The position numbers and the translations under genes are program-made. The notes under the pieces were generated by a model. It made no database searches. It saw only the letters and a list, made by a program, of their open reading frames with translations, and had not been told where the DNA came from. Positions 17,594 through 63,411 of a stretch of DNA of 64,000 nucleotides are shown here, one piece after another (positions within the stretch are counted from its first letter, which is position 1; each line of letters opens with the position of its first letter). Location of the stretch: contig NC_090280.1 in NCBI RefSeq assembly GCF_037392515.1, positions 19,902,618 to 19,966,617 of the forward strand, read 5' to 3'. This stretch comes from Haliotis asinina (taxonomy: Eukaryota > Mollusca > Gastropoda > Lepetellida > Haliotidae).

Positions 17594-18257
17594 ATTTCTT
17601 CAAAAAATGCCAGCATGTTTGGACCAAATACGTCGTGCTTGTATTTATGACATGTATTTGGGACCATAAAAGAGCACAAACGTCGCTCAAGCTATTGCTC
17701 CGTAATAACTAAGCAATGAAAGCTATAAAATCATCAAATTCATACGAGCGTGTTACTGATGGATAAGAAACCATGACAGATACTCAACAGGTTCTATTGA
17801 TTTTGTAAAATCTTTCCGTTTATGTGTTGTGACACCAGGAGGTGCAGCACAGATCTGACGTGACACTGAGGCAGATGGTAGCCTAATGGCTGTAGCGTTC
17901 GATCGTCATTCATAAACCACATCAGATTGATCTTTCTTCTTGTACAGTTATTAAAGAAATGTTTGCGGAGTGAAGTCACTCGATTTTCATAATGTATATG
18001 ATTAAAGACCGAAATATCAAATACTAAGTAGAGTTTCTTAGATAATATTTCTTTTATTCATATTATCCACCCGCTGGTATTATCCACCCGCTCTTCCTGG
18101 TAGACTGTTCTGTTGAAAACACATAATAAATATGGACTGTATGGTGAGAATTAGACCGACACGGTATGGAAATTCCTTGACGATTTAAGACTATTTAGGA
18201 GGAGGCGTGTGGCCTCTATCATCTCATAAAAACAACATGACCAGCAGGCGTGAGTAG
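17594..18257. other. Upstream region of GALNT gene
   Basis: Holds the 5' flank of the minus-strand glycosyltransferase. No TATA box or upstream exon could be identified with confidence. The rest is unremarkable. Confidence 0.4.
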
Positions 18258-22700: not shown

Positions 22701-23697
22701 TCGTGGGTTAACAGAACAACCCATATATCCGTTTCTTGTTTATAAAAATATTTTACGCTGACGCGCAGTAATACACATATACACGCATATTGCTTACCAA
22801 CACACATTCAACTGTTTCACTCTAGCTTCGTGTTTATACCTTTTTAAAACTTTTGGTCAAAATCCTGTTTTCAAGAGAACACCTTTTTAGCTCGATAGTT
22901 CATGTGCGACTGACGCACCTGTCATTCAGTGAGATGTTGCCATTGGTAACGTGGAATGTTTCCGGATCGACAGATATCGACCTGCAGGAGGTGCGACGAT
23001 TAACAGCATGCACTGTCAACGCACGGAGAAAGCGCCTCGGGTATGTGCCCTATCACGGATAAGTATTAAGCACTAATGTCTAGCTTGTACCACAAATCCT
23101 TTGCCATACAACGTGAAAGGGTGGTACGGTCGTTAGCGTGTACATGTGTTGCAGCAACTATCAAAACACCATTGCGGCGTTTATTAACGAAGGTTCTAGC
23201 CTCTAATTTAATGGCTTCGACACGCTACAGGATTATTTATATGAAAAATAGTTGTACGAAAAACGAATGCTCGTGAAATGAAACCATATTGCAATGTGGG
23301 GCAATTGTGTTTGCGTGCAATTAAAATAAATAGATATTGGCGAGATATCATTGCCAGTCATTGCTATGTTAAAATACGTGACCGTTTTACACAGATTCTC
23401 GATGGTATAAAAATCATACAGTGTACAGGTAGTTTTATGAGATGATGTCCAAACCTTCATGCAAAGATGTCATGGTCAGAATATCAGGGATACAGCTGAT
23501 GGTTATAATCATACTCATTCCGATACAATAAAACCCGGACCTTTTTGGAATATCAAGTTTATACAACGGTACGGACTGCATATGCATTGGCGAGACGTGA
23601 CTAAAGGAACTCGGTCTCCCTGGAGTTATAAGGTAGGTAAACACTGCCTCTCTGACTTACACATGGGAGCCTAGTTTCCCTTGGTGTTACATTGTAA
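22701..23697. other. Intergenic, nothing recognised
   Basis: Open frames of 66-78 codons in several phases show no family features or splice context. Confidence 0.45.
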
Positions 23698-26600
23698 CCG
23701 TAACATACAGGGAGTGTGCCATAGAGGAGAACTCTAACAGAGAGGGAGAGCGGCATAGCGGAGAACTGTAACATACAGGGAGAGTGACATAGCGGAGAAC
23801 TCTAACATAGAGGGAGAGTGGCATAGTTGAGAACTGTAACATAGAGGGAAAATGGCATAGCGGAGAACTGTAACATAGAGGGAGAATGGTCATAGTTGAG
23901 AACTGTAACATAGAGGGAGAGCGGCATAGCGGAGAACTGTAACATACAGGGAGAGTGACATAGCGGAGAACTCTAACATAGAGGGAGAGTGGCATAGTTG
24001 AGAACTGTAACATAGAGGGAAAATGGCATAGCGGAGAACTCTAACATAGAGGGAGAATGGTCATAGTTGAGAACTGTAACATAGAGGGAGAATGGCATAG
24101 CGGAGAACTCTAACATAGAGGGAGAATGGTCATAGTTGAGAACTGTAACATAGAGGGAGAGTGGCATAGCGGAGAACTCTAAAACAGAGGGAGAGTGGCA
24201 TAGCGGAGAACTGTAACATAGAGGGAGAGTGGCATAGTTGAGAACTGTAACATAGAGGGAGAATGGCATAGCGGAGAACTCTAACATAGAGGGAGAGCGG
24301 CATAGCAGAGAACTCTAACATAGAGGGAGAGTGGCATAGTTGAGAACTGTAACATAGAGGGAGAATGGTCATAGTTGAGAACTGTAACATAGAGGGAGAA
24401 TGGCATAGCGGAGAACTCTAACATAGAGGGAGAGTGGCATAGTTGAGAACTGTAACATAGAGGGAAAATGGCATAGCGGAGAACTGTAACATAGAGGGAG
24501 AATGGTCATAGTTGAGAACTGTAACATAGAGGGAGAATGGCATAGCGGAGAACTCTAACATAGAGGGAGAATGGTCATAGTTGAGAACTGTAACATAGAG
24601 GGAGAGTGGCAGAGCGGAGAACTCTAAAACAGAGGGAGAGTGGCATAGCGGAGAACTGTAACATAGAGGGAGAGTGGCATAGTTGAGAACTGTAACATAG
24701 AGGGAGAATGGCATAGCGGAGAACTCTAACATAGAGGGAGAGCGGCATAGCAGAGAACTCTAACATAGAGGGAGAGTGGCATAGTTGAGAACTGTAACAT
24801 AGAGGGAGAATGGTCATAGTTGAGAACTGTAACATAGAGGGAGAATGGCATAGCGGAGAACTCTAACATAGAGGGAGAGTGGCATAGTTGAGAACTGTAA
24901 CATAGAGGGAAAATGGCATAGCGGAGAACTGTAACATAGAGGGAGAATGGTCATAGTTGAGAACTGTAACATAGAGGGAGAGTGGCATAGCGGAGAACTC
25001 TAAAACAGAGGGAGAGTGGCATAGCGGAGAACTGTAACATAGAGGGAGAGTGGCATAGTTGAGAACTGTAACATAGAGGGAGAATGGCATAGCGGAGAAC
25101 TCTAACATAGAGGGAGAGCGGCATAGCAGAGAACTCTAACATAGAGGGAGAGTGGCATAGTTGAGAACTGTAACATAGAGGGAGAATGGTCATAGTTGAG
25201 AACTGAAACATAGAGGGAGAATGGCATAGCGGAGAACTCTAACATAGAGGGAGAGTGGCATAGTTGAGAACTGTAACATAGAGGGAAAATGGCATAGCGG
25301 AGAACTGTAACATAGAGGGAGAATGGTCATAGTTGAGAACTGTAACATAGAGGGAGAATGGCATAGCGGAGAACTCTAACATAGAGGGAGAATGGTCATA
25401 GTTGAGAACTGTAACATAGAGGGAGAGTGGCATAGCGGAGAACTCTAAAACAGAGGGAGAGTGGCATAGCGGAGAACTGTAACATAGAGGGAGAGTGGCA
25501 TAGTTGAGAACTGTAACATAGAGGGAGAATGGCATAGCGGAGAACTCTAACATAGAGGGAGAGCGGCATAGCAGAGAACTCTAACATAGAGGGAGAGTGG
25601 CATAGTTGAGAACTGTAACATAGAGGGAGAATGGTCATAGTTGAGAACTGTAACATAGAGGGAGAATGGCATAGCGGAGAACTCTAACATAGAGGGAGAG
25701 TGGCATAGTTGAGAACTGTAACATAGAGGGAAAATGGCATAGCGGAGAACTCTAACATAGAGGGAGAATGGTCATAGTTGAGAACTGTAACATAGAGGGA
25801 GAATGGCATAGCGGAGAACTCTAACATAGAGGGAGAATGGTCATAGTTGAGAACTGTAACATAGAGGGAGAGTGGCATAGCGGAGAACTCTAAAACAGAG
25901 GGAGAGTGGCATAGCGGAGAACTGTAACATAGAGGGAGAGTGGCATAGTTGAGAACTGTAACATAGAGGGAGAATGGCATAGCGGAGAACTCTAACATAG
26001 AGGGAGAGCGGCATAGCAGAGAACTCTAACATAGAGGGAGAGTGGCATAGTTGAGAACTGTAACATAGAGGGAGAATGGTCATAGTTGAGAACTGTAACA
26101 TAGAGGGAGAATGGCATAGCGGAGAACTCTAACATAGCGGGAGAGCGGCATAGCGGAGAACTCTAACATAGAGGGAGAGTGGCATAGTTGAGAACTGTAA
26201 CATAGAGGGAGAGCGGCATAGCGGACAACTGTAACATAGAGGGAGAATGGTCATAGTTGAGAACTGTAACATAGAGGGAGATTGGCATAGCGGAGAACTC
26301 TAACATAGCGGGAGAGCGGCATAGCGGAGAACTCTAACATAGAGGGAGAGTGGCATAGTTGAGAACTGTAACATAGAGGGAGAATGGCATAGCGGAGAAC
26401 TCTAACATAGAGGGAGAGCGGCATAGCGGAGAACTCTAACATAGAGGGAGAGCGGCATAGTTGAGAACTGTAACATAGAGGGAGAGCGGCATAGCGGACA
26501 ACTGTAACATAGAGGGAGAATGGTCATAGTTGAGAACTGTAACATAGAGGGAGATTGGCATAGCGGAGAACTCTAACACAGAGGGAAAGTGGCATAGCGG

Positions 26601-27112
26601 AGAACTCTAGTGAGTGAGTGAGTTTAGTTTCACGCCGCACTCAGCAATATTCCAGCTATATAGAGGCGGTCTGTAAATAATCGAGTCTGGACCAGACAGT
26701 CCAGTGATCAACAACATGTGCATCGATCTGCGCAATTGGGAACCGATGACATGTGTCAAACAAGTCAGCGAGCATGACCACCCAATCCCGTTAGTCGCCT
26801 CTTACGACAAGCTGAGTCGCCTTCTATGGCAAGCATGGGTTGCTGAAGGCCTATTATAGCCCGGGACCTTCACGAGTCGCGGAGAACTCTAACATAGAGG
26901 GAGAGTGGCATAGTTGAGAACTGTAACATAGAGGGAGAATGGCATAGCGGAGAACTGTAACATAGAGGGAGAATGGTCATAGTTGAGAACTGTAACATAG
27001 AGGGAGAGTGGTATAGCGGAGAACTGTAACATAAGGGGAGCATGGCATAGCGGAGAACTCAAACATAGAGGGAGAGTGGTATAGCGGAGAACTGTAACAT
27101 AGAGGGAGCGCA
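23698..27112. repeat. 34-bp satellite with 445-bp higher-order unit
   Basis: About one hundred monomers of 34 bp (35 bp in variants carrying GGTCATAG) of the type GGCATAGCGGAGAACTGTAA plus CATAGAGGGAGAGT. Variants (GCGGAGA or GTTGAGA, CTGTAA or CTCTAA, GAGTGG or GAATGG) recur in a fixed order. The marker GCATAGCAGAGAACTC occurs near 24301, 24746, 25121, 25566 and 26011, giving steps of 445, 375, 445 and 445 bp, so 13 monomers form a higher-order unit and one block has lost two monomers. The edges (before 23960 and after 26100) are less regular. Because 34 is not a multiple of three, the minus strand stays open in overlapping frames, producing spurious repeated peptides. Confidence 0.95.
26610..26878 (-). 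mobile_element. SINE-A, full length, young, inside satellite
   Basis: A complete copy (GTGAGTGAGTGAGTTTAG to ACCTTCACGAGTC) interrupts the satellite. The 13-bp GCGGAGAACTCTA is present on both sides (26597-26609 and 26879-26891). That fits a target-site duplication, although the same 13 bp is part of the monomer, so this evidence alone is weak. The copy is close to the family consensus and has a small deletion near 26815. Confidence 0.9.
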
Positions 27113-30665: not shown

Positions 30666-31137
30666 GTTTTGGGTTTTTTGCCTTGACCAGTGATATGATC
30701 ACTATTTGATTATGCTTCATGAACATATTGTCATGATACTGGTGAAATCGACTCAGCTCTTGGCAAGCAATCCTCCTGGATGTGAACGGAAAGAGCTCTG
30801 TTGCTTCTATTCGCAGGCGTTGATCAATGTGTTTCCATTGAATTACAGTTCTGAAAGTACAATGGCGACAACACATGCATCGTTATTAGGGACTGGTTGC
30901 TTGTCATTGAAAGTCACTCCTCAAAATGAAATATTGCAAAGTGCTGGTGGTTGTATCGAACATCCCGAATTAATGAACATTTGTTGTTTTCATTACAGCA
31001 GGGCCGTGACCTCCATGGAAGAAATAAGAAAAGAGAGATACCAAACGAAGGAATTTAACAAGCACAGAAATAAGGCATTAGTTTTCCTGTTCGGTCAAGC
31101 CCACATACGCTCTGTCATTTAAATATTCAGGGTGAAG

Positions 31138-32844
31138 ATGGGTATTCACCGTGTGATTGTGAGAAATAAAGTGGAAATGGCAGCTGCTGTTGTCATCTGT
31201 GCAGAGATCATCTTCATCGTGACCCTTCTGCTCAGGACGACAAGTACATCGTTGAGCATGTCTTTGAAAGTCCATGGCAATGATAGAAATAAGGCATCAT
31301 TGTCAACATATCATGTGAACTCGTTGAACAAAAATACAGAATTGGGTACGCCAAAATCCATGTCGACCAACGCATCGTTAACATCGTCTTTCACAGCTCT
31401 TGGCAATGGTACAAACGTTGTTTCACTGTTACGACATTATGTGAACTCGACAAAAACCAAGGGAATTTCAAAATCGATGTCATCTGCTGGCCTTGATAGA
31501 ACCTTAGATAACAGATTGTACCCTTACCGAGATTCTGGAACGTATTGTGACTGGAATGATTCAAACAGATGGGCTCCATTTAAATCTCAAGACCTACACC
31601 TTCTCAGTCACTGGTATTCCTCAATAGATAATTTCTTTTCAATCAATAACACACAACCACTGAATCTCCCAGAAGACGATGGTCCCAATTTGTATAAAAA
31701 TTATGATTTGAACAGGCCATGGAATTTTACTCTTCCAGATCTTGGTAACGAAGATTTCACATACCTGAACGGAAAGCTTAAATGTTTTAAACCAGGCACT
31801 TCCAAAGAGCTTAATGAGGGATCTGACGTGACATGCGTTTGTAGTTCAAGTTATGCAGGAAAACATTGTTCTGTGCCCCAAATCGTTAGGACTGCCTTGT
31901 CCAAATTGTCTCGCAGTTATATCATCACCCCAAGAGAAAAGCCACGGCGGATTATTCTCGTTATGACATTCAATATGGAGCATCATGTTCTCATGCTTAA
32001 GATACTACAAGTGCATTCAGCCGTGGATCTGTTTGTGATACTGGAATCCAACTATACCGGACATGGTGATCCGCGGCCTTTGAGGTTATTACACAATTTG
32101 AGACGAGGATACATGAAGCGATTCCACCACAAGATAATGCACGTTTATCTCGACACCTTTCCAGCAGGTGGACGAGCTAATGGTTGGATTGCTGAAACAT
32201 ACATCCGAGAGCAACTTGCACCTGCTGTTGAGAAGAGAGTCTCAGGGCTCAGAAAAGATGATTTATTCATATTTTTGGACACGGATGAAACGCCATCAGT
32301 GAACCTCCTACACTTCCTTAAACTTCACAATGGCTATCCCTTCCCTGTGGGATTTGTTCTTCAAAATTTTATATATGGATTCTTTTGGTTAAATAAAAAT
32401 TCAAAAACCGTTATCGGTGTGACTACAATCCAGATGCTAAGAGACATCTATAAAGGCAATAGTGATGCAATTCGTGGGAGCAAAGGTGTGATACAACAGC
32501 TCCAGAAGGGAAGTCACCCCTGGGGTATGTTTGAAACCTGGCTGATCGGATCATCTGACAACTATGCTGGCTGGCATGCATCATGGTTCTCCTCGCCAAG
32601 GGAGGTAATCACGAAGCTGACTTCCGCTATTAATGCCGACTTTCCCCGATGGGGAGACTACCCAGAGAAATGTACATTTGACTATGTTGCTACTCTGTTC
32701 AGAAAGGGGGAATATTTTGATGGAAAGAAGCAATTCATTCCAATTTGTTTCAACGACATTCATGTGTTGCAAGACATTTCTTATCTGTTCAAGTACAAAG
32801 GATACTTCACTTTTATGCTACAAAATCCAACAGCCGTGCAGTAA
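31138..32844 (+). CDS. GT17-family beta-1,4-N-acetylglucosaminyltransferase (MGAT3-like), single coding exon
   Basis: Likely a Golgi enzyme of the MGAT3 family, which adds bisecting GlcNAc to the core mannose of N-glycans using UDP-GlcNAc. The 568-residue protein has a type II anchor (residues 14-32), a long Ser/Thr- and Asn-rich stem, a short EGF-like cysteine motif (CVCSSSYAGKHC, about 233-244) and the GT17 domain (about 270-555). Diagnostic blocks include FVILESNYTGHGDPRPL, DTFPAGGRANGWIAE, the acidic FLDTDETPS (vertebrate MGAT3 has DADEIP), YGFFWLN, FAGW-like YAGWHASW and DFPRWGDYPEK. I chose ATG 31138, because the frame in phase upstream starts only with a GTG. A strong splice acceptor (TTGTTTTCATTACAG ending at 30998) suggests an upstream 5'-UTR exon. 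The stem has an imperfect internal duplication about 42 residues apart (HVNS...KSMS twice). AATAAA follows at 33000. Donor specificity is inferred from the family only. Confidence 0.9.
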   Translation: MGIHRVIVRNKVEMAAAVVICAEIIFIVTLLLRTTSTSLSMSLKVHGNDRNKASLSTYHVNSLNKNTELGTPKSMSTNASLTSSFTALGNGTNVVSLLRHYVNSTKTKGISKSMSSAGLDRTLDNRLYPYRDSGTYCDWNDSNRWAPFKSQDLHLLSHWYSSIDNFFSINNTQPLNLPEDDGPNLYKNYDLNRPWNFTLPDLGNEDFTYLNGKLKCFKPGTSKELNEGSDVTCVCSSSYAGKHCSVPQIVRTALSKLSRSYIITPREKPRRIILVMTFNMEHHVLMLKILQVHSAVDLFVILESNYTGHGDPRPLRLLHNLRRGYMKRFHHKIMHVYLDTFPAGGRANGWIAETYIREQLAPAVEKRVSGLRKDDLFIFLDTDETPSVNLLHFLKLHNGYPFPVGFVLQNFIYGFFWLNKNSKTVIGVTTIQMLRDIYKGNSDAIRGSKGVIQQLQKGSHPWGMFETWLIGSSDNYAGWHASWFSSPREVITKLTSAINADFPRWGDYPEKCTFDYVATLFRKGEYFDGKKQFIPICFNDIHVLQDISYLFKYKGYFTFMLQNPTAVQ

Positions 32845-34161: not shown

Positions 34162-37100
34162 TTATAATTCAACCAGGAAATCAATATCCTTTAAAAATCC
34201 AATAATTAAATGAGCATTTACTGTGTTAAAGAGATCCGAAAGTGTTTTTACATTAAAATATTTATCCCTTATGATGGAGAATTCAACACAGTCAAGCAGG
34301 ATATGCTTGACCGTGGTTCTCTCATCACAAGGGATGCAAAACGGAGGATCTTCACCTTTCAACAGGTATGCATGTGTATACCTTGTATGACCAATACGAC
34401 ATCGTCGTAATATGGCCTCTTCAAATCTGGACGTAGGGTTTTATCTCATGTAATTTATTGATACCCACTTGGGTGTCCCACTTCTTCTGCATCAGATCAC
34501 GGATATAAGATCTAATGGTGGCTTTGTAATCACTGTAAGGAATAAGAAGTGGTGTCACAGATTTGTTGGGTGCTCCTTTAGCAGCAAGGTCAGCCAATGT
34601 GTTACCAGAGATTCCTACATGACTTGGTAACCAACAGAAGACGACGTCGTATTGGCCAGTAGCAAGATTATTATACAATTCAATAATTTCAATTAAAAGT
34701 GGATGTTTACAAGAAATATTTTTAATCGCTTGAAGGCAAGAAAGAGAGTCAGAATAGATTATATACTGTTTATGCTGAGGGTGTCTTTGAATATATTTAA
34801 GAGCAGTTAGTATTGCGTTAGCTTCAGCTGTAAAAATAGAACTGTTGTCTGGAAATCTAGAAGATATTGTTCTCGATCCAATGACAGTGGCACAAGCCAC
34901 TGCGCCACCGTCCTTGGACCCATCTGTAAAAAAGGATTTATAATTGCTATATTTATGTTTTAATTGATGATATTCTTGTGTGTATTGTAATTCATTTGTT
35001 GCTGATTTTTTATATGTGGTCAATGTTAGGTCCACTTGGGGCCTGACCAACTGCCAAGGAGGAGATGAAAGAAGACGGGAGGGAGCTATGTTTTCCAGCT
35101 CAATGCTTGCCGAAGAAAGAAAGGGTTTAATTCTGTGTCCTAGAGGCGGGACAAGCGAGGATTTCTTGGTGTATAAATCCTCATGAAGGGGATTGAAAAC
35201 GCAGTTATAGGCAGGGTTAGATTCATTAGAGTATAGCTTAGTAATGTACTGTAAAGCTAACTTTATACGGCGCAGCTCAAGAGATGGTTCATCAGCCTCA
35301 ACGTAGAGACTGTCAATAGGTGAAGTTCTGAAGGACCCAAGACAAAGTCTTAGGCCTTGGTGGTGGACAGAATCGAGACGTTTAAGGTTGCTTTTGCAGG
35401 CTCCGCCATATACGATGGAGCCATAATCAAGTTTTGAACGGACCAGTGATCGATATAGGTGTAAGAGGGTCGCTTTATCCCCTCCCCATTTTGAGTTGGA
35501 AACAACTTTCAGCAAGTCGAGAGCCTTAAGGCATTTAGTTTTAAGGAACTTAATATGAGGCAGAAATGTTAAGTGGGAATCAAAGATTAGGCCCAAGAAC
35601 TTGGCCTCCTTAACAACTCTGATGGGAGTGCCATCTAGAGATAGTTCAGGGTCCTTATGTGGCTTATATTTTCTGCAAAAATGTATACAATTAGTTTTGG
35701 ATTTAGAAAACTTAAAGCCGTTTTGAAGACACCATTTATTTATTTTGTTTAAACACAACTGCAGTTGCCGTTCAATAGTGTGCATAGTTTTCCCACGACA
35801 AGAAATATTAAAATCATCCACAAATAGCGATCCATCAATTGAATCATTTAAAACTTTTGATAAACTATTTATCTTTATACTAAAAAGAGTGACAGACAAA
35901 ATACTGCCTTGTGGAACACCCTGATCCTGATTGTAATGATCAGACAGGGTAGAACCCACTCGGACCTGGAATTGTCTGTCATTTAAAAACTTGGCAATAA
36001 ATTCAGGCAAACGACCTCGCAAGCCGAAGTCATGTAAATCTCGTAAAATGCCATATTTCCAGGTAGTGTCATATGCCTTCTCAAGGTCAAAAAAGATAGA
36101 GACAGCGTGTTGTTTTTTGATTAGAGCGTTTTTAACAAATGATTCTAAACGCACTAAGTGATCGACAGTACTTCTATTTTTACGGAAACCACATTGTATA
36201 TCTGTGATAAGGTTATTTGTTTCCAAGTACCAAACAAGTCGAATATTTATCATGCGTTCCATGGTTTTGCAAACACAGCTAGTTAGTGAAATAGGTCGAT
36301 AATTGGACGGATCAGTATGATCACGTCCAGGTTTAGGTATTGGTACTACTATGGCGTCACGCCATGAGTGAGGAAACTTACCCGAGGTCCAAATATCATC
36401 AAAAATATTGAGAAGAGTTTCTAGGCAGGATTCTGGTAAATGCTTTAGGAGTTGATAATGTATGTTATCAGCTCCTGTAGCAGTATCATGGGCTTGATCA
36501 AGAGCAGTATGGAGTTCATGAAGGGAAAAAGCTTCATTTTAATCCTCCCCACTATCTGAATGGAAGTTAATAGTTTTCTTTTCTTGTTGTTTTTTATACT
36601 GCTGGAATTTAGGTACATAATTAGAAGAGGAAGAATGTTTAGCGAGGGTTTCACCCAGTTTATTTGCAATATCTGATTTATCCGTTAGTAATTGATCTCC
36701 ATGTTTAAGATGATGGACAGTAGATTTAGTACCTTTACCTTTAATTTTCTGGACCATGTTCCATACCTTGGACATGGGTGTCCGAGAATTTATTTTGGAT
36801 ACATAATTTTGCCAAGATTGGCGTTTGTTGTGTTTAAAAGTACGCCGTGCTTTAGCATGTAAAATTTTAAATTTATTTAAGTTATGCACCATAGGATGGC
36901 GACGGAAATAATGTTCTGCCTTTTTCCTTGCCTTCCTAGCTTGTTTGCAGTCATCGTTGAACCATGGTTTTCGGATATGTGGAACAGCAGAGGACTTTGG
37001 AATACACTCATCAGCAATGTTATTTAGTTCATCAGAAAAGCACTTGATAGCATCAGGAACGTCAATAAAATGTTCAGGTTTAAGTTTGTCAGCACATTGT

Positions 37101-39644: not shown

Positions 39645-39978
39645 TGTCGACCCGTGAAAACCTGTGGTAGAGTAAGCTTTCAGCAACCTATGCCAGCCAT
39701 AAAAGGCGACTATGCTTGTCGTAAGAGGCGACAAGCGGGATCGGGTGATTAGACTCGCTGACTTGACTGACACATGTCATCGGTTCCCAGTTGCGCAGAT
39801 CGATGCTCAAGGTGTTGATCACTGGATTGTCTGGTCTAGATTCGATTATTTAGAGACCGCCACCATACAGTTGGAATATTTGCTGAGTGTCGTGTAAACC
39901 TAAATCCACCCATTCATTTACATTCTATCTTTGCGACAGACGATTGACTGTAACAAAAAACACACAGGCTAAATTACG
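39645..39978 (+). repeat. SINE-A plus 70-bp passenger sequence (arm 1)
   Basis: SINE-A from GACCCGTGAAAACCTGTGG (39653) to AACCTAAATCCACCCATTC (about 39916), followed by a non-SINE stretch containing CTATCTTTGCGACAGACG and ACACACAGGCTAAATTAC. The same SINE plus the same passenger occurs inverted at 46575-46852. The tail is degenerate (CCACCCATTC), as it is in the partner copy (CTCACTCATTC). Confidence 0.8.
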
Positions 39979-52691: not shown

Positions 52692-55600
52692 ATGTGGCTC
52701 TCAGCAAGCAGTATGTGGCTATGCGTGGCAGTCTTTGTTTATATGCTATGTCTTGTCAGTGGTCAATATCAAGTGACCATTTATCCGGACTTCGTCATGA
52801 AAGGAGGAAGGAAGACGTTTGATCCTGATCGCTGGAATGGTCATATGGGTATTGATAGACCCGATATCATTCCGTATGTGAACAAAACCGGTGCCAGATG
52901 TGGCCGCGTGAACAAGGGTGATATGCCTGCCTTTGGGAAGGTATTTTGGTGCAATTTATACTGTCAAACTAAAAGAACACAGGAAAATTTAAGTGTTGCC
53001 TTAATGGTGTACAGTTTTTATCACCAGCTTTGCATAGTGGCTGAGTTAATATTTAGCGTCACATCGACAATATTGCAGCCATATCTTCACTAAGACATCT
53101 TAATTATTTATCTACTTTTTAATCGGTGTGGTTCGTAGAACACTGGTTATCCCTTTTGACAGATGTGACTCCATGGTTTCTAGTGTGGTGATCTACCTTC
53201 AGTTGCTCACGATCGATAACCCGTGATATATATTTTATCGCCCTCTTTAATGGTATTTTTTTGTATATAACATGCTTGTTTTAAATTAAGATTTGTGATA
53301 CTCTAGTACTTTTATTGTCCATAGACGACAGATTTTTAATCTTCAAAATGTACTCATATCTAATTTATGAATTGTTCCCTCTTTTCTCTCTCAATCTCTC
53401 CCTCTCGCGCTTTCTGTCCTTCTCTCATCATACATATATAGACTTGCTTATTTTACTCCCTTGCAAAGCACACAGTACATAGCAAATTAGCATAGACCAA
53501 TATCAACACATTCACGTTAACACCCTCTAATATACAACACTGTCATGTCGCTTTTTGCAGGCAACAGAGGATCCTCACCGGAAGGGCTATGCCGATCCAG
53601 CGTACTTCCAGAATGCGCAGGTCCAACATAGTATAGTTTCTGCATATGTTAATAACAGAGCAGGATACGGGCGAGGCCCTGGAAGAGATATCATGCTTGA
53701 TCTTAGTGGTAAGATCAGTGTTGTTATACATTTAAGTGATCAAAACCAAACTGAAAGTTTTTGACCTCAATTAAATGCTATATCGCAGTCAGCAAACTGG
53801 CAAAAGGCGGCGGTCTCTAAATAATCGGGTCTGGACCACATAATCCAGTGATCTTCAACATAAACCTCGATCTACGGAACTGGACTACGATCAAATAGCG
53901 TCAACAAAGTCAGCTAAGACAAGTAAGGGTTAGTGAAGATCAGTTCTAACTCCTATCTTCACTGGTCGTCACGGTAGAACAAGAGAGGGCAATGTGGCAC
54001 TAGTCTTTAACGTGTCACCATCAGTAATTATCAGATCACAATGGAGGAACGTTAATGAGACATGGGGATCTGGTCGTCCAAGAGCGATCCTTGCGAGACT
54101 CGTGTTGTTTCTGTCTACTTTCAACAGAAGAGCATTACCGCCTTACACTGACCAGTGGTGACTTGCAAAAAGCGATCTTAGCGCTTCAATGATTGTAACT
54201 CCCATCCTCCAACATTGGCACAAGATAGTCTTAGCGCTAAGATTGCTTTGTGCAAGTGGGCCCAGTGGTATACACAATTTGTTAGGCCCTGGTCGTCTTT
54301 TATCCTATGCCCCAATTGTGTATACTATTTACCAAGGTGCATGCAATATTTATGTAAAATCGATGGAATAGTTTTCAAGATATGGATTTCGAAGCGAGCA
54401 TTAGGTCGGTTGGGAAAGGCAAAATGATCAACTTTTTGCCGTAATTAAGTCTTAATTAATCGAAGAAGTCATCGAGAGTGTTGTCAATGCTGGTTTGCTA
54501 TAAGGTAACCATCTGCTGAGATACATGCATAATTTCACGAAAATATGTCGAATCCTCTTGGAAATAATCACTTTTAAGTGAACATGGAGTCAATCTGGTG
54601 AAAGGCTAACAATCTAGTGTATTGTCGCACTTGTTATACATTAGCGAGACGATGGGTGTTTTCAGCGGAATGAAATGCAGCCCTTGACAGTTCCCCCCAT
54701 CTGCCTTGCTACCATCTCGCAAGGACGTACTTATAGCGAGGTGAGAGTGACGTTCAATGACTACGGCAAAGTTGTGCAGCTACGCCATCGACAACATCTA
54801 ACTGCAGTTCGTCATGGTCACGAGCTCCCAGCTGGCCCGGCAAATTGGTCATCTGTACTGAGGAAAGCTGTCCATCCTGTACAACCAAGTCCTGAGGTAC
54901 CAGACGAGCATCTATGACAAGAGCAAATGAACACACAAATAAACACACAAATGAACGTCGACCTGAATGTGCTCGTGCGATCGATGAAAGGCATCTTGAT
55001 CATTCCCGTGGAGGATGATGAACCATTGGAAAGAGACAGTCAAAAATGTTTCAACCCCGAAATCATGAAAATGGAAGTGACCGCCAAGAGCATGCTCAGC
55101 TACCTGTACAGCCAAGGCATGAGAGGTCACCAGCAGTAGCACCAGATCATACAGCTGCAGACGATCAAAGGCACACCAGAAACCAACGCAGCAGGGAGTA
55201 CCTGACCAACAAGTACATCCAGTGGCTGGACATGCGATCCACAGACAATCACGGTCTCCATGGCAGCGGACATCGCATCAACAATGGTAGCGAGGGGAGC
55301 ACTGTCCAGATCACCAAGAAAGCTCAAACGGAAGGGCTAAATGAATGTATGTTTGTAAAGGATTATGGATGTGCAACTGAACATAGACAATGGGAGACTT
55401 ATGCAAGCCATATATTGATCTTATCGCGATTGAGTGCAGTCAGACCAGGTGCGGGAAAATGGCATTCATGCTGGACCTGCTGAATGGTTACTATCGAGAG
55501 GCGTTCAACCAGATCATCATTTTCTGCCCAACTTTGGGAGAGAGCATGGGGGACGATGGACCTGAATGTGGATGGAGTCAATCCAGGAACGCGTGTGTAC

Positions 55601-58600
55601 TTACCACCAGAAACTGAAAGGAGAACTGAAACTGTACCTCCTAGACAACTGCAGCACCAACAGGGAAATCGTGACAAAGGCAGACGTGATGTTATACCTC
55701 GCCTTCTTGGACCGACACACAAAGCACAGAGTTTGGTTGCTGACACAGAAATTCAACCCAGTTCTGAAACATTTGAGAGAACAGACGTGATGGGTCTCCT
55801 GGTTTCACTGCAAGGAAAGGGATTCGTTCAAGGAATGTTTGCAGGAAAACGACGTGATTCCTTCCCCAAAAGAATGCAACCACACGAAGAAGCAGTTCTC
55901 TTAAATGAAACACACCCAACTACTGTAAAAACCGACCAAATTGCGTATCAACTTGATTTCATCTTGCTGTGTTTCGTGTGCATCAGAGTTTAGGCTCATC
56001 ATGTATTAGGCTCAAAAAAACGTTTCTTACATTATTACAAGGTGGAGTGGAATGACCAGTTCGTGCAAATGGAAGATAATACCACTAGAAGTGTGAACAA
56101 CAGGCTGGTGGCACTTGCAGTCAGCGGCAAAGCCAAGCACTACTTGGGCAGTGGTGATCACACACCCGATAAAATTCACAAATTGCCTGCCGCAGACATT
56201 GACAAGTTGTATGTGAGGTACTCTGTCTCGAAATCACGAAAACCATAGGATGCAGGTCTACATCAGCCTGTCTTCATACTTCCTTCCCATTCTGCCAGAC
56301 TTTACTTGTGGGAAAATCTTGAGAAAGATCCATTCATCAATCACCATCAGCTGCATGCTGTACAACAGATCCGGCATGTTGTTTGCTCTGGTGACAGTGG
56401 TGATCATCAAGGTGAAGCATTGTCGAAAGTAAGGATGTCGACAAACAAAGTAAGGATGAAATAGAAGGACAATACACGTGCCATGCTGCCACTGTCATCT
56501 TGCTGGCCATAGGCTATGCGCACTTCAGCAAAATGATCACCAAACAACCAGTGCCCATGCTCGATTTCAACCCGCAAGACATGGGCATGCTTGTGTTCGA
56601 CTTGGGATTGGTGACGGCCACTATAGACATGCTTGTCAAGCAAGGCACCATTCTGGAAAACATATTGAAGTAAAAACAATGTAAATGCATACATCATCAA
56701 CGGTCGGCGAGGCATTAGTCAACACCTTGGCGATTTCAGGCAACAATTATCCTTTACTCCCGATTGCAAATGTTGAATGCGGCTGAAGTTGAAGCCAAAC
56801 AAAAACATCACAAGGTTGTGAAGAAACTGCAGACCGCACAATCTGGGTACGCTGAAAAACGTGCTTGGAGAATTGATTTCATCAATACCTGACTCTTGCC
56901 CAAAAACAACACCATGAAAACGTTGATGACGCTGGGCGAAATTACTACCTGCTCGCCAGCAAACGACTCAAACTTCTCTATGATGCAACCATGCCCTCTC
57001 AGCATTACACGCCTTCGAAGACACAGCATCCCCAAAAACACGGAAAAGTGCATCTCGTTCTCCATGAACGGCCTGAAATCAACCACTCTATTATACACAG
57101 GCACCGAGGCTCGGTCTCTGTTGCTCCGGAAGGGTGACTACCCTTACGATTATATGAATGATTGGTCCTAGTTCAACGAGGCGTGATTGCCTCCCATCAA
57201 ATGTTTTCACAGCACCTTGACTGACTCGACCATCACTCGGGATGATTACTCACACAGAGTTAACATGTGGAACAAACTCGGCGGCAAAACACTTTGCAAT
57301 TACCATGACCTGTACACAAACAGATGTGATGCTTTTGGCCGACATGTTTGAGACCTTCACGAAAATGAGCTCAAAACAGTATGGCCTGGATTCCGCATGG
57401 TATTTAATTTATCCCCGTCTCTCTTGGGATGCCATGTAGAACCGTAACTGCTGATGGATTACAACATGCAACTGTTCACAGAGAAAGACTTCCAACATGG
57501 GATTTCCGTGGCCTCCAAATGCTACACCAAAGTACAAGTACATGGAGGGCCATGGCCCTGGCAAACCAAGCATACACCTCCTCGACGCCAACAACCTGTA
57601 TGACTGGGCCACGTGCCAGTATCTCCCCACCCAAGGATTTGAATGTTTCTCCTTGCCTGAGATGATGGGAGTGAATAGCTAGATTCGAACAAAGGCTACG
57701 TGCTCGAAGTACATTTGGAATACCCTTGAGAATCATTTGACTCACACAACACGTGTCAGCAGGCTCCCGAACGATTGATGGTGAACACGGACTGGATGTC
57801 CAATGACCAAACGAAACTTGCTGGGAAACAATAAGATGACAGCTAACGTAAAAAAAACAACTCGTCCATAACCCTAAGGACAAAACGAAACACATTGTTC
57901 ACTATCACAACGGCTGTACCTGTCACTGGACATGAAACTCACAAAAATACACTGAGTGCTTGAGTTCGATCAAAGTCTTCGGATGGAGCCTAATATGTGA
58001 ATGAACATGGAGAAAATTTCTTACAGCCCACGTGGACACTCCAAAGGTTTGGACACCATCCTGAAACTCACCAAAGCTGAATGAGAGAAAGCCAAAGCTT
58101 GGCTCGAAAAACAAGCCATCTAGCAAGTTTAACTCCCAGTACCATGGTACACACCAAGAAGAAAATGTGACATTTCGACACCAAATTGTGTTCACTAAGC
58201 CGACCTCCTGTTTATACCACATGACAGGGTTAGGTGCAAAACCTACAAGTATGTACTGACCATCGTCAGCGTCGCCAGTCACTACAAAGAAGCCAAACTG
58301 CTGATGACCAAAGATTTTTATGACATCGGCAAATCTTTGGAATGCATCTACAAATGACCTGGTCCCACTGAGCTGCAAGTCGATTAGAGCCATATTGCAG
58401 CTGCTGGCCAAGTACAACCTCTTTGTGACAAAAGGAGTAGCCCTAGCTCACTGTAGCTAAGCCATCATCGAGATTTCAATGAACTCGGCATGGTCCTGCA
58501 GGAAGTGAGTGAGTGAGTTTAGTTTTACGTCGCACTTAGCAATATTCCAGCTATATGGCGACGGTCTGTAAATAATCGAGTCTGGACCAGACAATCCAGT

Positions 58601-60729
58601 GATCAATAACATGAGCATCGATCTGCGCAATGGGGAACCGATGACGTGTCAACCAAGTCAGCTAGTCTGACCACCCGATCCCGTTAGTCGCCTCTTACGA
58701 CAAGCATAGTCACCTTTTATGGCAAGCATGGGTTGCTGAAGGCCTATTCTACCCCGGGACCTTCACGGGTCTCCTGCAGGAAGAATGGGATGGAATGAAA
58801 CAAGTTGACATTGAATTTTTCATCAAGAGTACAGCACGTCTAATTCAGAATTTACTTGAAAATATAGGCGGATTTGTGAGATATTGGTAAACTGAGTTGG
58901 ACGCTTGTTAACTTGGCTTTGGCAAATCATCTGATCAAAATGTTCGTGTAATGCATACCTGACTATTGAGCTATTTTGTGACTTAATATAAAGGACATCG
59001 AGAGGTGTGAGTGTTACGGACATTCCCCTACTTTTCAAATAGTTTATGTCTGTGACTAACTTTTAATCCAAAATACAAAAGTCCTCAAGATGGGGCTGTA
59101 TTGCACATGATATGATAACTCTGGCTTATTGGCTTGAACACGGGACAGCAAAATTGTATTCACCCAGATACTTCTGCAATATGAAATGTGTAGATTAATA
59201 CCAGATACTAAATATATAACCTCCTTCACAACTACAGTTATTTAAATGCATCACTGTTCCTCATTATAGCGCAAGAATGGCCACACTGGATGGACACATC
59301 TCAACACAAAGGAAAATTCCCTAACGACGTGGATGCTGCTGCTGATATGGCTGCCATGCTGCTTAAGGCCTTCCATGATGGCACCAACGGTGACGAACCA
59401 CCATATTTTGAACCCATTAACGAAGTAGACGTTATGTGGAGGTACAAGGTTAACTGGACCAAAATCACGGCCTACCATAAGCTGGCCAGTTCAAAAGTCA
59501 AGGCCATTTTACCACATGTGAAGGTTGGGGGTCCAGCATATTCGGGTGGCATTTCGGGGATGGACAAAAGGGATTACCTTGTTTGGCGAAATGTCAAGGA
59601 GTTTTTGGACATGGCCGTCAAGCACCTTGACTTTTTCTCATTCCACCCTTTCAGTCACATGTATGTCACAGGAGAATCTCACTACTTCGACGGTCCAACT
59701 GAAGCCCGTTTTGTGGGCATAATAGATCTAATAGAAAGTTATGCCCATATGAAAACTGGTAAGGATATCCCAATCATCTGTTCAGCCTATGGTTTGGGCA
59801 TAATATCAGGAGTAGACATGCAGAAGCCTAACCCGCTGATTGATTATGGATATGTATACACTCAGAATTCAGAACTCTTTACCATGCTGAATCACCGTGG
59901 AGTTGTTGACAGAGCTGTGGTCTACCTAACTGGACACAGAGAGGTTTTCGGCCAAAGCAGCATTGATCACAGTATTCTCGACAAAAACAACCACGACAGG
60001 GCCCCAGCGGAAACGTTCCACTTCTGGCAGGTGCTTTCAAATCAAATGACATATCTCAGAACAGTCAGTCAGTACCATGGAGCTGTGAGAGTCGTGGCAT
60101 CGCACGCTTTGGTGGATCAAACGTCTAAAACAGTGGTACTTCTCCTGCATAACTTTGACAAGAAGCCAACAAAGGTCAAGGTTCAGTTTGGTCATGGGTG
60201 GATGGGATCGCCCACAGCAATCATGTCTTGTATCTACTTAAACGCCCAAAAGGTTACCGTCCGAGACAAAGAATCAACGGTTCATCTCAACAATGGTGTC
60301 GTCACTCTTCCCACTGAGGCAAGCTGCTATCTCAAGTTCCAATCTGCCTTCGACTTTGCTCACAGCAAGACCATCACAGAGACCATTCACTATGGGCCGG
60401 AAGTTGTCAAACCAATACAACAAAACGCTGTCACCACAAGCATCAATGTGGGCCATCTGAGCAATGTCCAGTACGCATACCTAAGAATCTGCCTCAGTGA
60501 CAAGACCGGTAATCTTAAACCAACATCAGTGCAGCTGAATGACAAGTCTCTAACTTCATATTACTCCCTTTATCAGCAAAACGAGAGCATTTATGATACA
60601 ACATGGAATACGATAGAATATCTAGTTCCGAGCTCTTACCTCAAGCAAAACCAAAATGAAGTTAAGCTTCATTTTGCCAAAACAGGAGGGCTAGTTATAA
60701 GTGTTGTTGTTGTTGTGGGAACTTTCTAA
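52692..60729 (+). CDS. Secreted glycoside hydrolase, GH86-like (agarase/porphyranase family), three exons
   Basis: Likely descends from enzymes that cleave beta-1,4 links in agarose or porphyran of red algae. Exons are 52692-52940 (phase 0), 53561-53708 (phase 1) and 59270-60729, all with GT..AG, joining to 618 codons. Signal peptide at residues 1-24 (MWLCVAVFVYMLCLVSG then QYQV). The N-terminal part has NGHMG and GARCGRVNKGD, then EDPHRKGYADP. The catalytic barrel has WPHWMD (136-141), the clan GH-A acid/base motif PPYFEPINEVD with Glu184, and FFSFHPFS. At the expected nucleophile strand the sequence is PIICSAYG, with Ala305 (GCC, 59785-59787) where Glu of an E-Y-G motif is usual; the 121-residue spacing from Glu184 fits the family. 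The last ~230 residues look like beta-sandwich. A TATA-like TTATATAC lies at 52659-52666. Intron 2 (5.56 kb) holds a virus-like fossil. Family call by motif memory; activity doubtful. Confidence 0.75.
53035..53345. repeat. Rearranged LINE 3' UTR in GH86 intron 1
   Basis: 53035-53095 (GCTGAGTTAATATTTAGCGT, CAATATTGCAGCCATATC) is the terminal LINE sequence in minus orientation. 53120-53340 (GTGATCTACCTTCAGTTGC, TTATTGTCCATAGACGACAG) is 3' UTR in plus orientation, so the copy is internally inverted. The homologous intron of the downstream copy (61398-61991) has no such insert. Confidence 0.75.
53775..53960 (-). repeat. SINE-A, old, in GH86 intron 2
   Basis: GCGGCGGTCTCTAAATAATC, GTCTGGACCACATAATCCAG and TTAGTGAAGATCAGTTCTAA follow SINE-A order with heavy divergence. 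Confidence 0.65.
54161..54257. repeat. 97-bp inverted repeat (MITE-like foldback)
   Basis: 25-bp arms (54161-54185 and 54233-54257) match at 23 of 25 positions in inverted orientation; the left arm starts ACTTGCAAAAAGCG. The loop is 47 bp. It could be a miniature inverted-repeat element or a chance palindrome. No target duplication is clear. Confidence 0.6.
54690..58430 (+). mobile_element. Polinton-like (DNA polymerase B-bearing) virus-like element, fossil fragment
   Basis: A decayed piece of a large virus-like DNA element lying in intron 2 of the GH86-like gene. Recognisable parts, all on the plus strand: a structural, probably capsid-like protein region (about 54750-55350); a P-loop region resembling a packaging ATPase (about 55380-55620); an unassigned region (about 56040-56700); and a type B protein-primed DNA polymerase region (about 56760-58430) with blocks such as YPYDYMNDWS and YMEGHGPGKPSIHLLDANNL. 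It is thoroughly broken (well over ten disruptions), much shorter than a whole Polinton (15-20 kb), and no terminal repeats, integrase or protease were seen. The absence of an equivalent in the paralogue's intron suggests arrival after the gene duplication. The capsid and ATPase assignments are weaker than the polymerase. Confidence 0.7.
58505..58771 (-). mobile_element. SINE-A, full length, young, with target duplication
   Basis: Complete 267-bp copy, GTGAGTGAGTGAGTTTAG to CCTTCACGGGTC, flanked by TCCTGCAGGAA on both sides (58494-58504 and 58772-58782), a clean target-site duplication. It is the best reference for the family in this window. In element orientation it begins GACCCGTGAAGGTCCC and ends in the TCAC tail. 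It inserted at or beyond the edge of the virus-like fossil, so it is younger than that. Confidence 0.95.
58784..59269. other. 3' part of GH86 intron 2
   Basis: The first ~100 bp, together with the bases just left of the SINE, read FNELGMVLQ / EEWDGMKQVDIEFFIKST, which recalls the C-terminal end of a Tc1-type transposase, although this is uncertain. The rest is unidentified and ends in the splice acceptor CCTCATTATAG of exon 3. Confidence 0.4.
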
Positions 60730-61154: not shown

Positions 61155-63057
61155 ATGAACAGAGTGTCGCTGTGTGTGGGGGTCCTGATTTATATGTTAA
61201 GCTTTGTCAGTGAACAACATCAAGTGATCATCTATCCGGACTTCGTCATGAAGGGTGGAAGGAAGATGTTTTATCCTGATCGTTGGAATGGTCACATGGG
61301 GCTGGATAATCCGAACCGCATCCAGGACGTTGAGAAAACCGGTGCCAGTTGTGGCCGCTGGAACAAAGGCGATATGGTCGAAGGTGCCTTTGAGAAGGTA
61401 ATTGATGCAATCATATTAAGTAATCCTAGTAGGACATGACATACATCCAATCGAACACTTGATGCGATCACTAATGTTGGTTGACCCATTTTTTCAAAGA
61501 GAATATTTTCATTTTCAAGACCGTTTGTTTTCTTTATATCAGCCACTTGCCAGACGGTAGTTTTCATTAGTTCAACCAACTCAAAGTCGGGGATGACACA
61601 GACGAAAGATCCTAATATTCGGTAAACTCTCTGTATGTTTGTCTACATACAACGAGTTCATTTCTGTGCAAGGTTTTTTGTGTACATGGGCATGGAGATT
61701 CATAAGAATCACGACCAGATTTTATAAAAACAATTCATTGGAAGCGTTCTTAGGAGCCTAACAGAGATGCTATTACTTTTGTGTGCCAAATTTTAAATGC
61801 ACACAATTTTGTTTTAATACAAAAAATTCGGTATATAATACCACCCTTACATTATCCATCAGACAAATAGAGACTTGATTATGTAAGCATCCTTAAAAAG
61901 CACAGAGTACACAACAAAGTAGTACACACCGATATTAACACATTCACCTTAACAACCTCAGATGTGTAACACTGACAAGCCACTTTTACAGGCACCAGAG
62001 GACCCTCACTGGAAGGGCTATGCTCATCCAGCTTATTTCCGGAAACTTCACACAGAACACAGCGTCTTTATACTCTGCGAATAGAGCTGGACTGACCCTT
62101 GGGAGAGACATCATGATAGATCTTAAAGGTCGGAGTAATGTGTGTTGTGGCATTTTGAAAGATTGTGGCAGTGTTAAACAAAGCCTTTACATTTCAAAAA
62201 CTACTATTTTGTCTTATTATTGTACCAATGGCATAGAGTAACCAAACCTGGACACGGTAATATCCCATACGTGCCACACAAAATGTGTAACAATATTTAG
62301 TATAGGTGAGGGTAAATGTCTTGTGTTCAGGGTAGATACGTTCTGCTCGTGTCGTGTCATTTGGTATGGGAACATGAAAGAGATCCTGCAGGCCTCAAAA
62401 TCAAAATCAATGTATACAAACCGAAACTACACTGTTTTGTCAAGTCTAGGAAAAGGAGGCATTTTTAGGACTTCATTTGTTTTATAGTAATATCGTGTAT
62501 TTTTCATATTTTTCAAGTTGTCAATCAAACACAAAAATACGCACAGTGAAATCGACAAATCTAACCATAATTTGTTAGTAATACAAACTACGTTGTCATA
62601 CTACTGGAAACTAAATCAGCACTATGGTAAATTAAATGCGTCACTCTGACTCTTGCAAGCCCAAGAGTGACCACACTGGATGGATACATCTCAGCACAAA
62701 AGTCAATTCCCTAACGACGTGGATGTTGCTGGTGATTTGGCAAGCTGCTATCTCAAGTTCCAATCTGCCTTCGCTCACAGCAAAACCATTACAGAAACTG
62801 TTCACTATTCGCCAGATATTGCTAAACCAATACACCAAAGCGTTTTCACCACAAGCATCAATGCAGGCTATGTGAGCAATACGCAGCATGCATATCTACC
62901 AGTCTGCATCAGTCTCAATGACAGGACCAGAAATCCTAAGCCATCAACAGTGCAACTGGGCTCATACCGCAAGCAAAACCACAATGAAGTTAAACGCCAT
63001 TTTGTCAAAACAGGAGGGCTAGTCAAAAGTGTCGTTGTTCCTGTCGGCAGTTTTTAA
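61155..63057 (+). pseudogene. Tandem GH86-like copy, internally deleted pseudogene
   Basis: A second copy of the upstream gene with the same exon plan: 61155-61397 (phase 0, signal peptide MNRVSLCVGVLIYMLSFVSE), 61992-62128, and 62660-63057. Intron 1 aligns with that of the first copy just before the acceptor, so this is a DNA-level duplication and not a retrocopy. Exon 2 is 137 bp against 148 bp, so its frame is lost midway. Exon 3 has TGA (62668-62670) where the first copy has the Trp of WPHWM. Two clean in-frame deletions relative to copy 1 remove its residues 160-482 (969 bp, with both catalytic positions) and 556-586 (93 bp). The C-terminal frame then stays open to the stop. It cannot encode a hydrolase. 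A short secreted product of exon 1 is conceivable but unsupported. Confidence 0.85.
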
Positions 63058-63411
63058 ACAAGTAGTCCTCGCTTGTACATGTTTGTACATAAAGAATGCA
63101 TTTTTTCTGTCCAATGTTGTCTTTTCTTTGTTGTTGTGGTACATCAATATTCGGCGGAATAGATCCGTCTTACAGTGGGTTTTACATTAGACATGAGATT
63201 GAACGGATGCGAAATATTGTACTTTGTATTACCACAGATATAGATTATGCTATGCCAGTTTTAACACGGACTCCTTCAAGTATCTGTAACAGATAGTCAT
63301 GTCACTGAGCTTGGTGATCTGTGACCGAAATACCGATGAAAGCTTTCTGCTGTATGATAACTATAGATTATGGCATGCCGCTTTTACCATGGACTCATTC
63401 AAAGCCCTGAT
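63058..63411. other. Intergenic after the GH86 pair
   Basis: Probable former 3' UTR of the second copy, then unidentified sequence. A short imperfect direct repeat is visible (ATAGATTATGC at about 63240 and ATAGATTATGGCATGCC at about 63363). Confidence 0.4.

What the first reader, a model, noticed from the sequence alone, without database searches (positions are those of the whole stretch)
52692..60729. GH86-like agar/porphyran hydrolase gene with introns in an animal genome
The spliced reading of three exons gives one uninterrupted 618-residue secreted protein whose motifs (EDPHRKGYADP, WPHWM, PPYFEPINEVD, FFSFHPF) fit GH86, a family I know from marine bacteria. Spliceosomal introns, a eukaryotic signal peptide, animal repeats in the introns and a tandem paralogue argue against bacterial contamination. 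If the family call holds, this is a candidate horizontally acquired red-algal-polysaccharide gene in a grazing mollusc.
Basis: partly seen in the sequence, partly recalled or inferred. Interest (0 to 1): 0.75.

Follow-up and report, generated by a model that had tools for sequence, protein, structure and literature searches.

The report
Animal agarase-like gene lacking catalytic residue
An intron-bearing gene in an animal (probably mollusc) genome encodes a secreted-looking relative of bacterial enzymes that digest red-algal sugars, but this copy has lost the key catalytic amino acid and its neighbour copy is broken, so it is unlikely to be a working digestive enzyme.

Summary
Exons 52692-52940, 53561-53708 and 59270-60729 (+) join at GT..AG borders into a 618-aa frame; a broken tandem copy keeps all four splice-site positions.

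The family call holds as homology. BuGH86 (E 8e-15) and BpGH86A (1e-6) are the only convincing PDB sequence matches. BPA_C just passes its Pfam cut-off. A bacteria-only profile scores 240 bits against at most 3.8 for 1000 shuffles. The seven best fold matches are GH86.

"Hydrolase" is not supported. The catalytic nucleophile, Glu in 47 of 47 aligned bacterial homologues and mutated in BuGH86 to make an inactive form, is Ala here; GCC needs two changes from a Glu codon. Nearby conserved Tyr, Asp and Trp are lost too; the acid/base Glu is kept. The neighbour has an in-frame stop and lacks the catalytic core. Ka/Ks of 0.32 suggests past constraint.

Best reading: a GH86-like pseudoenzyme; a decaying copy is the main rival. 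Horizontal origin is plausible but unshown: placement is unresolved, and no eukaryote collection could be searched.

The parts
52692..52940 (+). Exon 1: start codon, hydrophobic N-terminus (signal peptide by eye), start of the domain; donor GT at 52941
   Evidence: donor position shared with copy B
53561..53708 (+). Exon 2, with the EDPHRKGYADP stretch that aligns to ED..R.G in many bacterial homologues
   Evidence: both borders shared with copy B
53709..59269 (+). Intron 2, 5.6 kb, holding interspersed repeats and a run of broken ORFs; six of these ORFs gave no Pfam match. The same intron is only about 0.5 kb in copy B
59270..60729 (+). Exon 3: rest of the barrel and two beta-sandwich domains, stop TAA
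   Evidence: (AlphaFold2 of exon 3, pLDDT 85.3, pTM 0.87)
59422..59424 (+). GAA: Glu184, acid/base position of the NE motif, retained
   Evidence: (Glu in 46 of 47 homologues)
59650..59652 (+). TTC: Phe260 where 46 of 47 homologues have Tyr
59785..59787 (+). GCC: Ala305 at the catalytic nucleophile position
   Evidence: (Glu in 47 of 47 homologues); BuGH86 E322
59944..59946 (+). GTT: Val358 where 45 of 47 homologues have Trp
60442..60717 (+). BPA_C domain (beta-porphyranase A C-terminal, PF18040)
   Evidence: E 5.6e-6, 26.8 bits, cut-off 26.2
61165..61397 (+). Copy B, exon 1 relic
61992..62129 (+). Copy B, exon 2 relic (3' limit approximate, read from the GT that stands where copy A has its donor; length differs from copy A)
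62660..63057 (+). Copy B, exon 3 relic: in-frame stop at 62668-62670, an internal deletion of 969 bp (about 323 codons) that removes both catalytic positions, and a second gap of about 31 codons near the C-terminus

Best explanation
The locus is an animal nuclear gene for a secreted protein of the GH86 type (clan GH-A barrel plus two beta-sandwich domains) that has lost its catalytic nucleophile, and with it retaining hydrolysis of agar or porphyran: a pseudoenzyme. The gene was duplicated in tandem after its introns were in place; copy B then broke. Copy A keeps an intact frame, the fold and the acid/base Glu. Shown: homology, predicted fold of exon 3, the missing nucleophile, Tyr and Trp, broken copy B, shared introns. 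Inferred: secretion, loss of activity, and a remaining role in binding red-algal galactan or another glycan. Active family members may lie elsewhere in the genome, which could not be searched.
For: gene structure, shared splice sites; sequence homology to bacterial GH86-type proteins; model and fold search: ranks 1-7 GH86, E 4e-29 to 2e-27, next fold 3e-16; nucleophile Glu in 47 of 47 homologues, and 35 of 35 in an earlier overlapping set; Ala here; Y260F, D261S, W358V; BuGH86 E322Q described as an inactive nucleophile mutant; Ka/Ks 0.32, bootstrap 0.21-0.49, 220 codons, against copy B.
Against: Arg, Asn, acid/base Glu and His of the conserved columns are retained, so some chemistry or function of the cleft may persist. 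No activity, expression or animal homologue was seen. Copy B diverges too, so Ka/Ks is a joint value, from the surviving ends; it does not cover the catalytic part, which is deleted in B. Measured against the intron 1 distance of 0.28 instead of Ks 0.47, Ka would be a ratio of about 0.55, a weaker sign of constraint. Aga86A_Wa, a third GH86 of known structure, was not among the phmmer matches at E <= 10.
Confidence: 0.6

Rival explanations
1. Copy A is a relaxed or recently dead copy that happens to keep its frame; it makes no functional protein, and the active animal enzymes, if any, are other copies.
For: Copy B beside it is plainly broken; copy A has lost three core active-site residues and matches only 27 of the 43 columns that are at least 80% conserved among 47 homologues; branch of 2.9 changes per site; ratio of about 0.55 if the intron distance is the yardstick.
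Against: 618-codon frame and splice sites intact, Ka/Ks 0.32, high-confidence predicted fold. The Ala codon GCC needs at least two changes from GAA/GAG, so the loss is not one fresh mutation.
Confidence: 0.28
2. Copy A is an active agar/porphyran hydrolase, with an altered catalytic apparatus.
For: Near full-length homology to GH86 and retained acid/base Glu.
Against: Nucleophile position is Ala; Glu in 47 of 47 homologues. The corresponding BuGH86 mutant is used as an inactive form. A conserved Tyr and Trp are also lost.
Confidence: 0.08
3. Bacterial contamination or a misassembled bacterial insert.
For: Every relative found is bacterial, but only prokaryote, phage, plasmid and viral collections could be searched.
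Against: Four splice-site positions shared by two copies; repeats inside intron 2 that recur through the window; animal-type glycosyltransferase ORFs and a reverse transcriptase ORF in the same window; best-segment identity to bacterial hits at most 30% and 32.4%.
Confidence: 0.02
4. Question of origin, independent of the function readings above: the gene was inherited from an old eukaryotic lineage rather than acquired by a mollusc from a marine bacterium.
For: Deep, unplaced branch; not nested inside any bacterial clade with firm support.
Against: The hits are patchy among bacteria, and the long branch could equally be fast change after loss of catalysis.
Confidence: 0.3

Closest known systems
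BuGH86, beta-agarase of Bacteroides uniformis NP1 (PDB 5TA0, 5TA1, 5TA5)
   Same: Collinear over query residues 81-615; barrel plus two Ig-like domains; model TM 0.83 by query length; NE acid/base motif
   Different: 20-26% identity; nucleophile E322 is Ala here; Tyr of H.Y and Trp of KSEW lost; eukaryotic introns
BpGH86A, beta-porphyranase of Bacteroides (Phocaeicola) plebeius (PDB 4AW7)
   Same: Same fold; sequence match E 1e-6 over query 223-615
   Different: 17-20% identity; same missing residues as above
Uncharacterised GH86-like proteins from the phylum of G001 (record of L001 is titled Lentisphaerae), e.g. L030, L033, L034, L047, L048
   Same: Share with the query a (W/Y/F)Px(W/F/Y)M stretch (WPHWMD here) and ED..R.G; phmmer 38-78 bits against the query, where the best bacterial row of all, L015, has 90
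   Different: Nucleophile Glu present; the tree does not firmly join the query to them

Membership tests
GH86 (agarase/porphyranase family, clan GH-A) | Significant sequence homology to characterised members | tested here: met
   BuGH86 E 7.8e-15, BpGH86A 1e-6 in a search of 177635 sequences (Aga86A_Wa not reported); 240 bits against a bacteria-only profile
GH86 (agarase/porphyranase family, clan GH-A) | TIM barrel followed by two beta-sandwich (Ig-like) domains | tested here: met
   on exon 3 only (about the first 132 residues left out) and with bacterial GH86 rows in the alignment; BPA_C Pfam just above cut-off, Porphyrn_cat_1 below cut-off (E 0.033)
GH86 (agarase/porphyranase family, clan GH-A) | Acid/base Glu in the NE motif | tested here: met
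   E184; Glu in 46 of 47 homologues
GH86 (agarase/porphyranase family, clan GH-A) | Nucleophile Glu (BuGH86 E322) | tested here: not met
   Ala305, Glu in 47 of 47; the alignment sets it against the E/Q at which 5ta1 and 5ta0 differ; for the role of E322
GH86 (agarase/porphyranase family, clan GH-A) | Tyr of the H.Y motif and Trp after the eighth strand (active-site roles recalled from clan GH-A, from no call) | tested here: not met
   Y260F (Tyr in 46 of 47), W358V (Trp in 45 of 47)
GH86 (agarase/porphyranase family, clan GH-A) | Falls inside the clade of characterised GH86 enzymes | tested here: inconclusive
   outside it as a lone branch; joining it to that 28-row clade is not rejected (p-AU 0.166)
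GH86 (agarase/porphyranase family, clan GH-A) | Hydrolysis of agarose or porphyran | not testable with these tools
   needs purified protein
Horizontally transferred animal gene | Nested within bacterial sequences in a tree that also holds other eukaryotes | not testable with these tools
   no eukaryote genome collection on hand; no genome held for the window

The most novel reading that the evidence does not exclude
A grazing mollusc acquired a bacterial GH86-type gene, gave it introns, duplicated it in tandem, and kept one product as a secreted non-catalytic protein that still grips red-algal galactan (or another sulphated glycan): a domesticated pseudoenzyme working as a binding, sensing or defence protein.
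Probability: 0.2. Interest if true: 0.75.

Novelty: new variant of a known kind. Interest (0 to 1): 0.5.

Why it matters
In the listings and passages seen here GH86 appears only as a bacterial family, and the well-known cases are gut bacteria that borrowed it from marine bacteria. An animal-encoded, spliced GH86-type gene would mean that some grazers carry, or once carried, a red-algal galactan enzyme family of their own. The missing nucleophile warns against naming such genes agarases from profile matches alone, and gives a one-column check for any other animal copy.

Tried and rejected
Missing exon between exons 2 and 3: considered because intron 2 is 5.6 kb and the stretch there looks short. 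Rejected: the bacterial profile runs collinearly through the junction, copy B has the same borders, and tblastn of the protein over the whole window at E <= 1 hit only copies A and B.

Alignment slip as the reason for the Ala: rejected. In two alignments the column holds Glu in 35 of 35 (recount of the set) and 47 of 47 bacterial rows; the two sets overlap. The phmmer pairing with BuGH86 gives the same register.

Other families: GH39 Pfam was under its cut-off (E 0.028); in the 50 fold matches shown, heparanase, GH39 and GH51 rank far below GH86. NCBIfam gave one weak, irrelevant match.

Further relatives: viral contigs none confirmed, phages none, plasmids 5 records. Phylum samples with alignment A1 at E <= 1e-5: 19 of 288, 3 of 395, 0 of 199 genomes, each sample including the genome used as its centre; of the 19, nine have only short matches of 26-33 bits that may be other GH-A families. 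With A2 at E <= 1e-10 in three orders: 2 of 6, 13 of 177 (three of them about 50 bits), 5 of 141. First-look caps make these lower bounds, and the empty phylum had no positive control.

Tree: 65 ORFs matched the query at E <= 1e-3. 47 were kept after I dropped 18 weak, partial, near-duplicate or very long-branch rows (L010, L012, L013, L032, L035, L037, L038, L039, L049, L051, L073, L074, L079, L084, L090, L091 and second ORFs of L075 and L085). Five of these (L010, L012, L032, L039, L051) are in the 35-row count and have Glu; for the other 13 the column was not counted. An earlier tree joined the query to L039 by long branches, flagged by the program; I do not trust it.

A crude ungapped intron comparison printed was spoiled by an indel; one search replaces it (103 of 134 identical).

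Literature: nine searches on the question in the open-licence PubMed Central library listed no title or abstract start that reports a GH86 gene in an animal genome; one search asked about BuGH86 and found nothing. I read passages of PMC5849685 and PMC5870069; the rest I saw as listings. This is not proof that none is in print.

Full report
Observation. The exons at 52692-52940, 53561-53708 and 59270-60729 join at GT..AG borders into 1857 nt coding for 618 residues plus stop. A second copy at 61165-63100 aligns in five DNA blocks of 77-83% identity and has GT or AG at all four corresponding splice-site positions, so the introns are older than the duplication. ARAGORN found no tRNA gene in the window. 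The window also holds a GalNAc-transferase-like ORF (15863-17599, -; GT2, galactosyltransferase and ricin-lectin Pfam matches), a family 17 glycosyltransferase ORF (31123-32844, +) and a reverse transcriptase/RNase H ORF (34421-36538, -), which fits an animal chromosome.

Family. phmmer against the PDB reports four distinct sequences at E <= 10: two BuGH86 sequences (E 7.8e-15 and 7.9e-15, query 81-615), BpGH86A (1e-6) and one chance match (1.1). Pfam BPA_C just passes its cut-off, 26.8 against 26.2 bits. From bacterial loci I built a profile of 47 bacterial domains aligned without the query: it gives the query 240 bits, exon 3 alone 210, exons 1+2 16, exon 2 alone 7.8, and the best of 1000 shuffles 3.8 bits; exon 1 alone gave no match. 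AlphaFold2 on exon 3 with those 47 rows gives pLDDT 85.3 and pTM 0.87. The seven best PDB matches are GH86 (five BuGH86 chains, Aga86A_Wa, BpGH86A); the next fold is 11 orders of magnitude weaker in E-value. The model leaned on bacterial GH86 rows, so the fold match is not independent of the sequence match.

Catalysis. In BuGH86 the nucleophile is E322, and the authors made E322Q as an inactive mutant (passages of PMC5849685). That position is Ala305 in the query, coded GCC at 59785-59787, while 47 of 47 aligned bacterial homologues have Glu (35 of 35 in an earlier, overlapping set). The acid/base E184 is kept (46 of 47 homologues). Of 43 columns at least 80% conserved among the 47, the query matches 27; the misses include Y260F, D261S, P350V and W358V. 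From general knowledge of clan GH-A (recalled), the Tyr and Trp line the -1 site. One wrong base cannot turn a Glu codon into GCC. I therefore do not file the protein as a GH86 enzyme; it is GH86-like and probably not a hydrolase.

Copy B. It has an in-frame stop at the start of exon 3 (62668-62670), a 969-bp deletion that takes out both catalytic positions, and a further gap of about 31 codons. Ka/Ks between the copies over 220 codons is 0.32 (bootstrap 0.21-0.49), with Ks 0.47 and Ka 0.15; the 3' part of intron 1 has a distance of 0.28 (103 of 134 identical). Against that intron distance Ka gives about 0.55, so the sign of constraint is clear by Ks and weaker by the intron. The value cannot speak about the catalytic part, which B lacks.

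Origin. In a tree of 48 rows the query is a lone branch of 2.9 changes per site. Joining it to the 28-row clade with the characterised enzymes (p-AU 0.166) or to a 7-row divergent clade (p-AU 0.368) is not rejected; its join with an 11-row divergent clade, found in the free tree, has support 86/56. Donor and direction are open. Eukaryote genomes could not be searched (and the tool list). Horizontal acquisition is a plausible inference from the bacterial distribution, not a result.

Mechanism. Most likely: a secreted protein with a GH86-type cleft that no longer forms a glycosyl-enzyme intermediate and, if it acts, acts by binding. A decaying copy is the main rival. Active members may exist elsewhere in the genome.

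Novelty and score. Nine text searches listed no report of GH86 in an animal genome. An animal GH86-like gene would be unexpected to a specialist; the catalytic loss lowers the digestive story but makes a clear test. Interest 0.5.

Noticed in passing
window 54600-58500: Intron 2 of copy A holds a run of overlapping broken ORFs (GC about 0.45) that copy B's short intron 2 lacks; six ORF pieces gave no Pfam match. Looks like a decayed mobile element.
   Followed up: partly
window 23696-26606 and 26879-27108: 34-bp minisatellite (about 85 copies, longer periods of 137 and 445 bp) with GC skew up to 0.48, parted by an interspersed repeat at 26609-26878.
   Followed up: no
window 58503-58771 and other places: About 270-bp interspersed repeat: copies at 26609-26878 (91% identical) and 39649-39919 (84%), and shorter partial copies elsewhere.
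   Followed up: no
window 15863-17599 (-) and 31123-32844 (+): Two long uninterrupted glycosyltransferase ORFs: GalNAc-transferase-like with a ricin lectin domain, and a family GT17 type.
   Followed up: partly
L030, L033, L061, L066-L069, L076, L080, L088, L089; and L031, L034, L047, L048, L064, L065, L075: Two divergent GH86-like bacterial clades (11 and 7 rows, both 100/100 support) apart from the characterised agarases and porphyranases, with both catalytic Glu columns kept; no characterised member known to me.
   Followed up: partly
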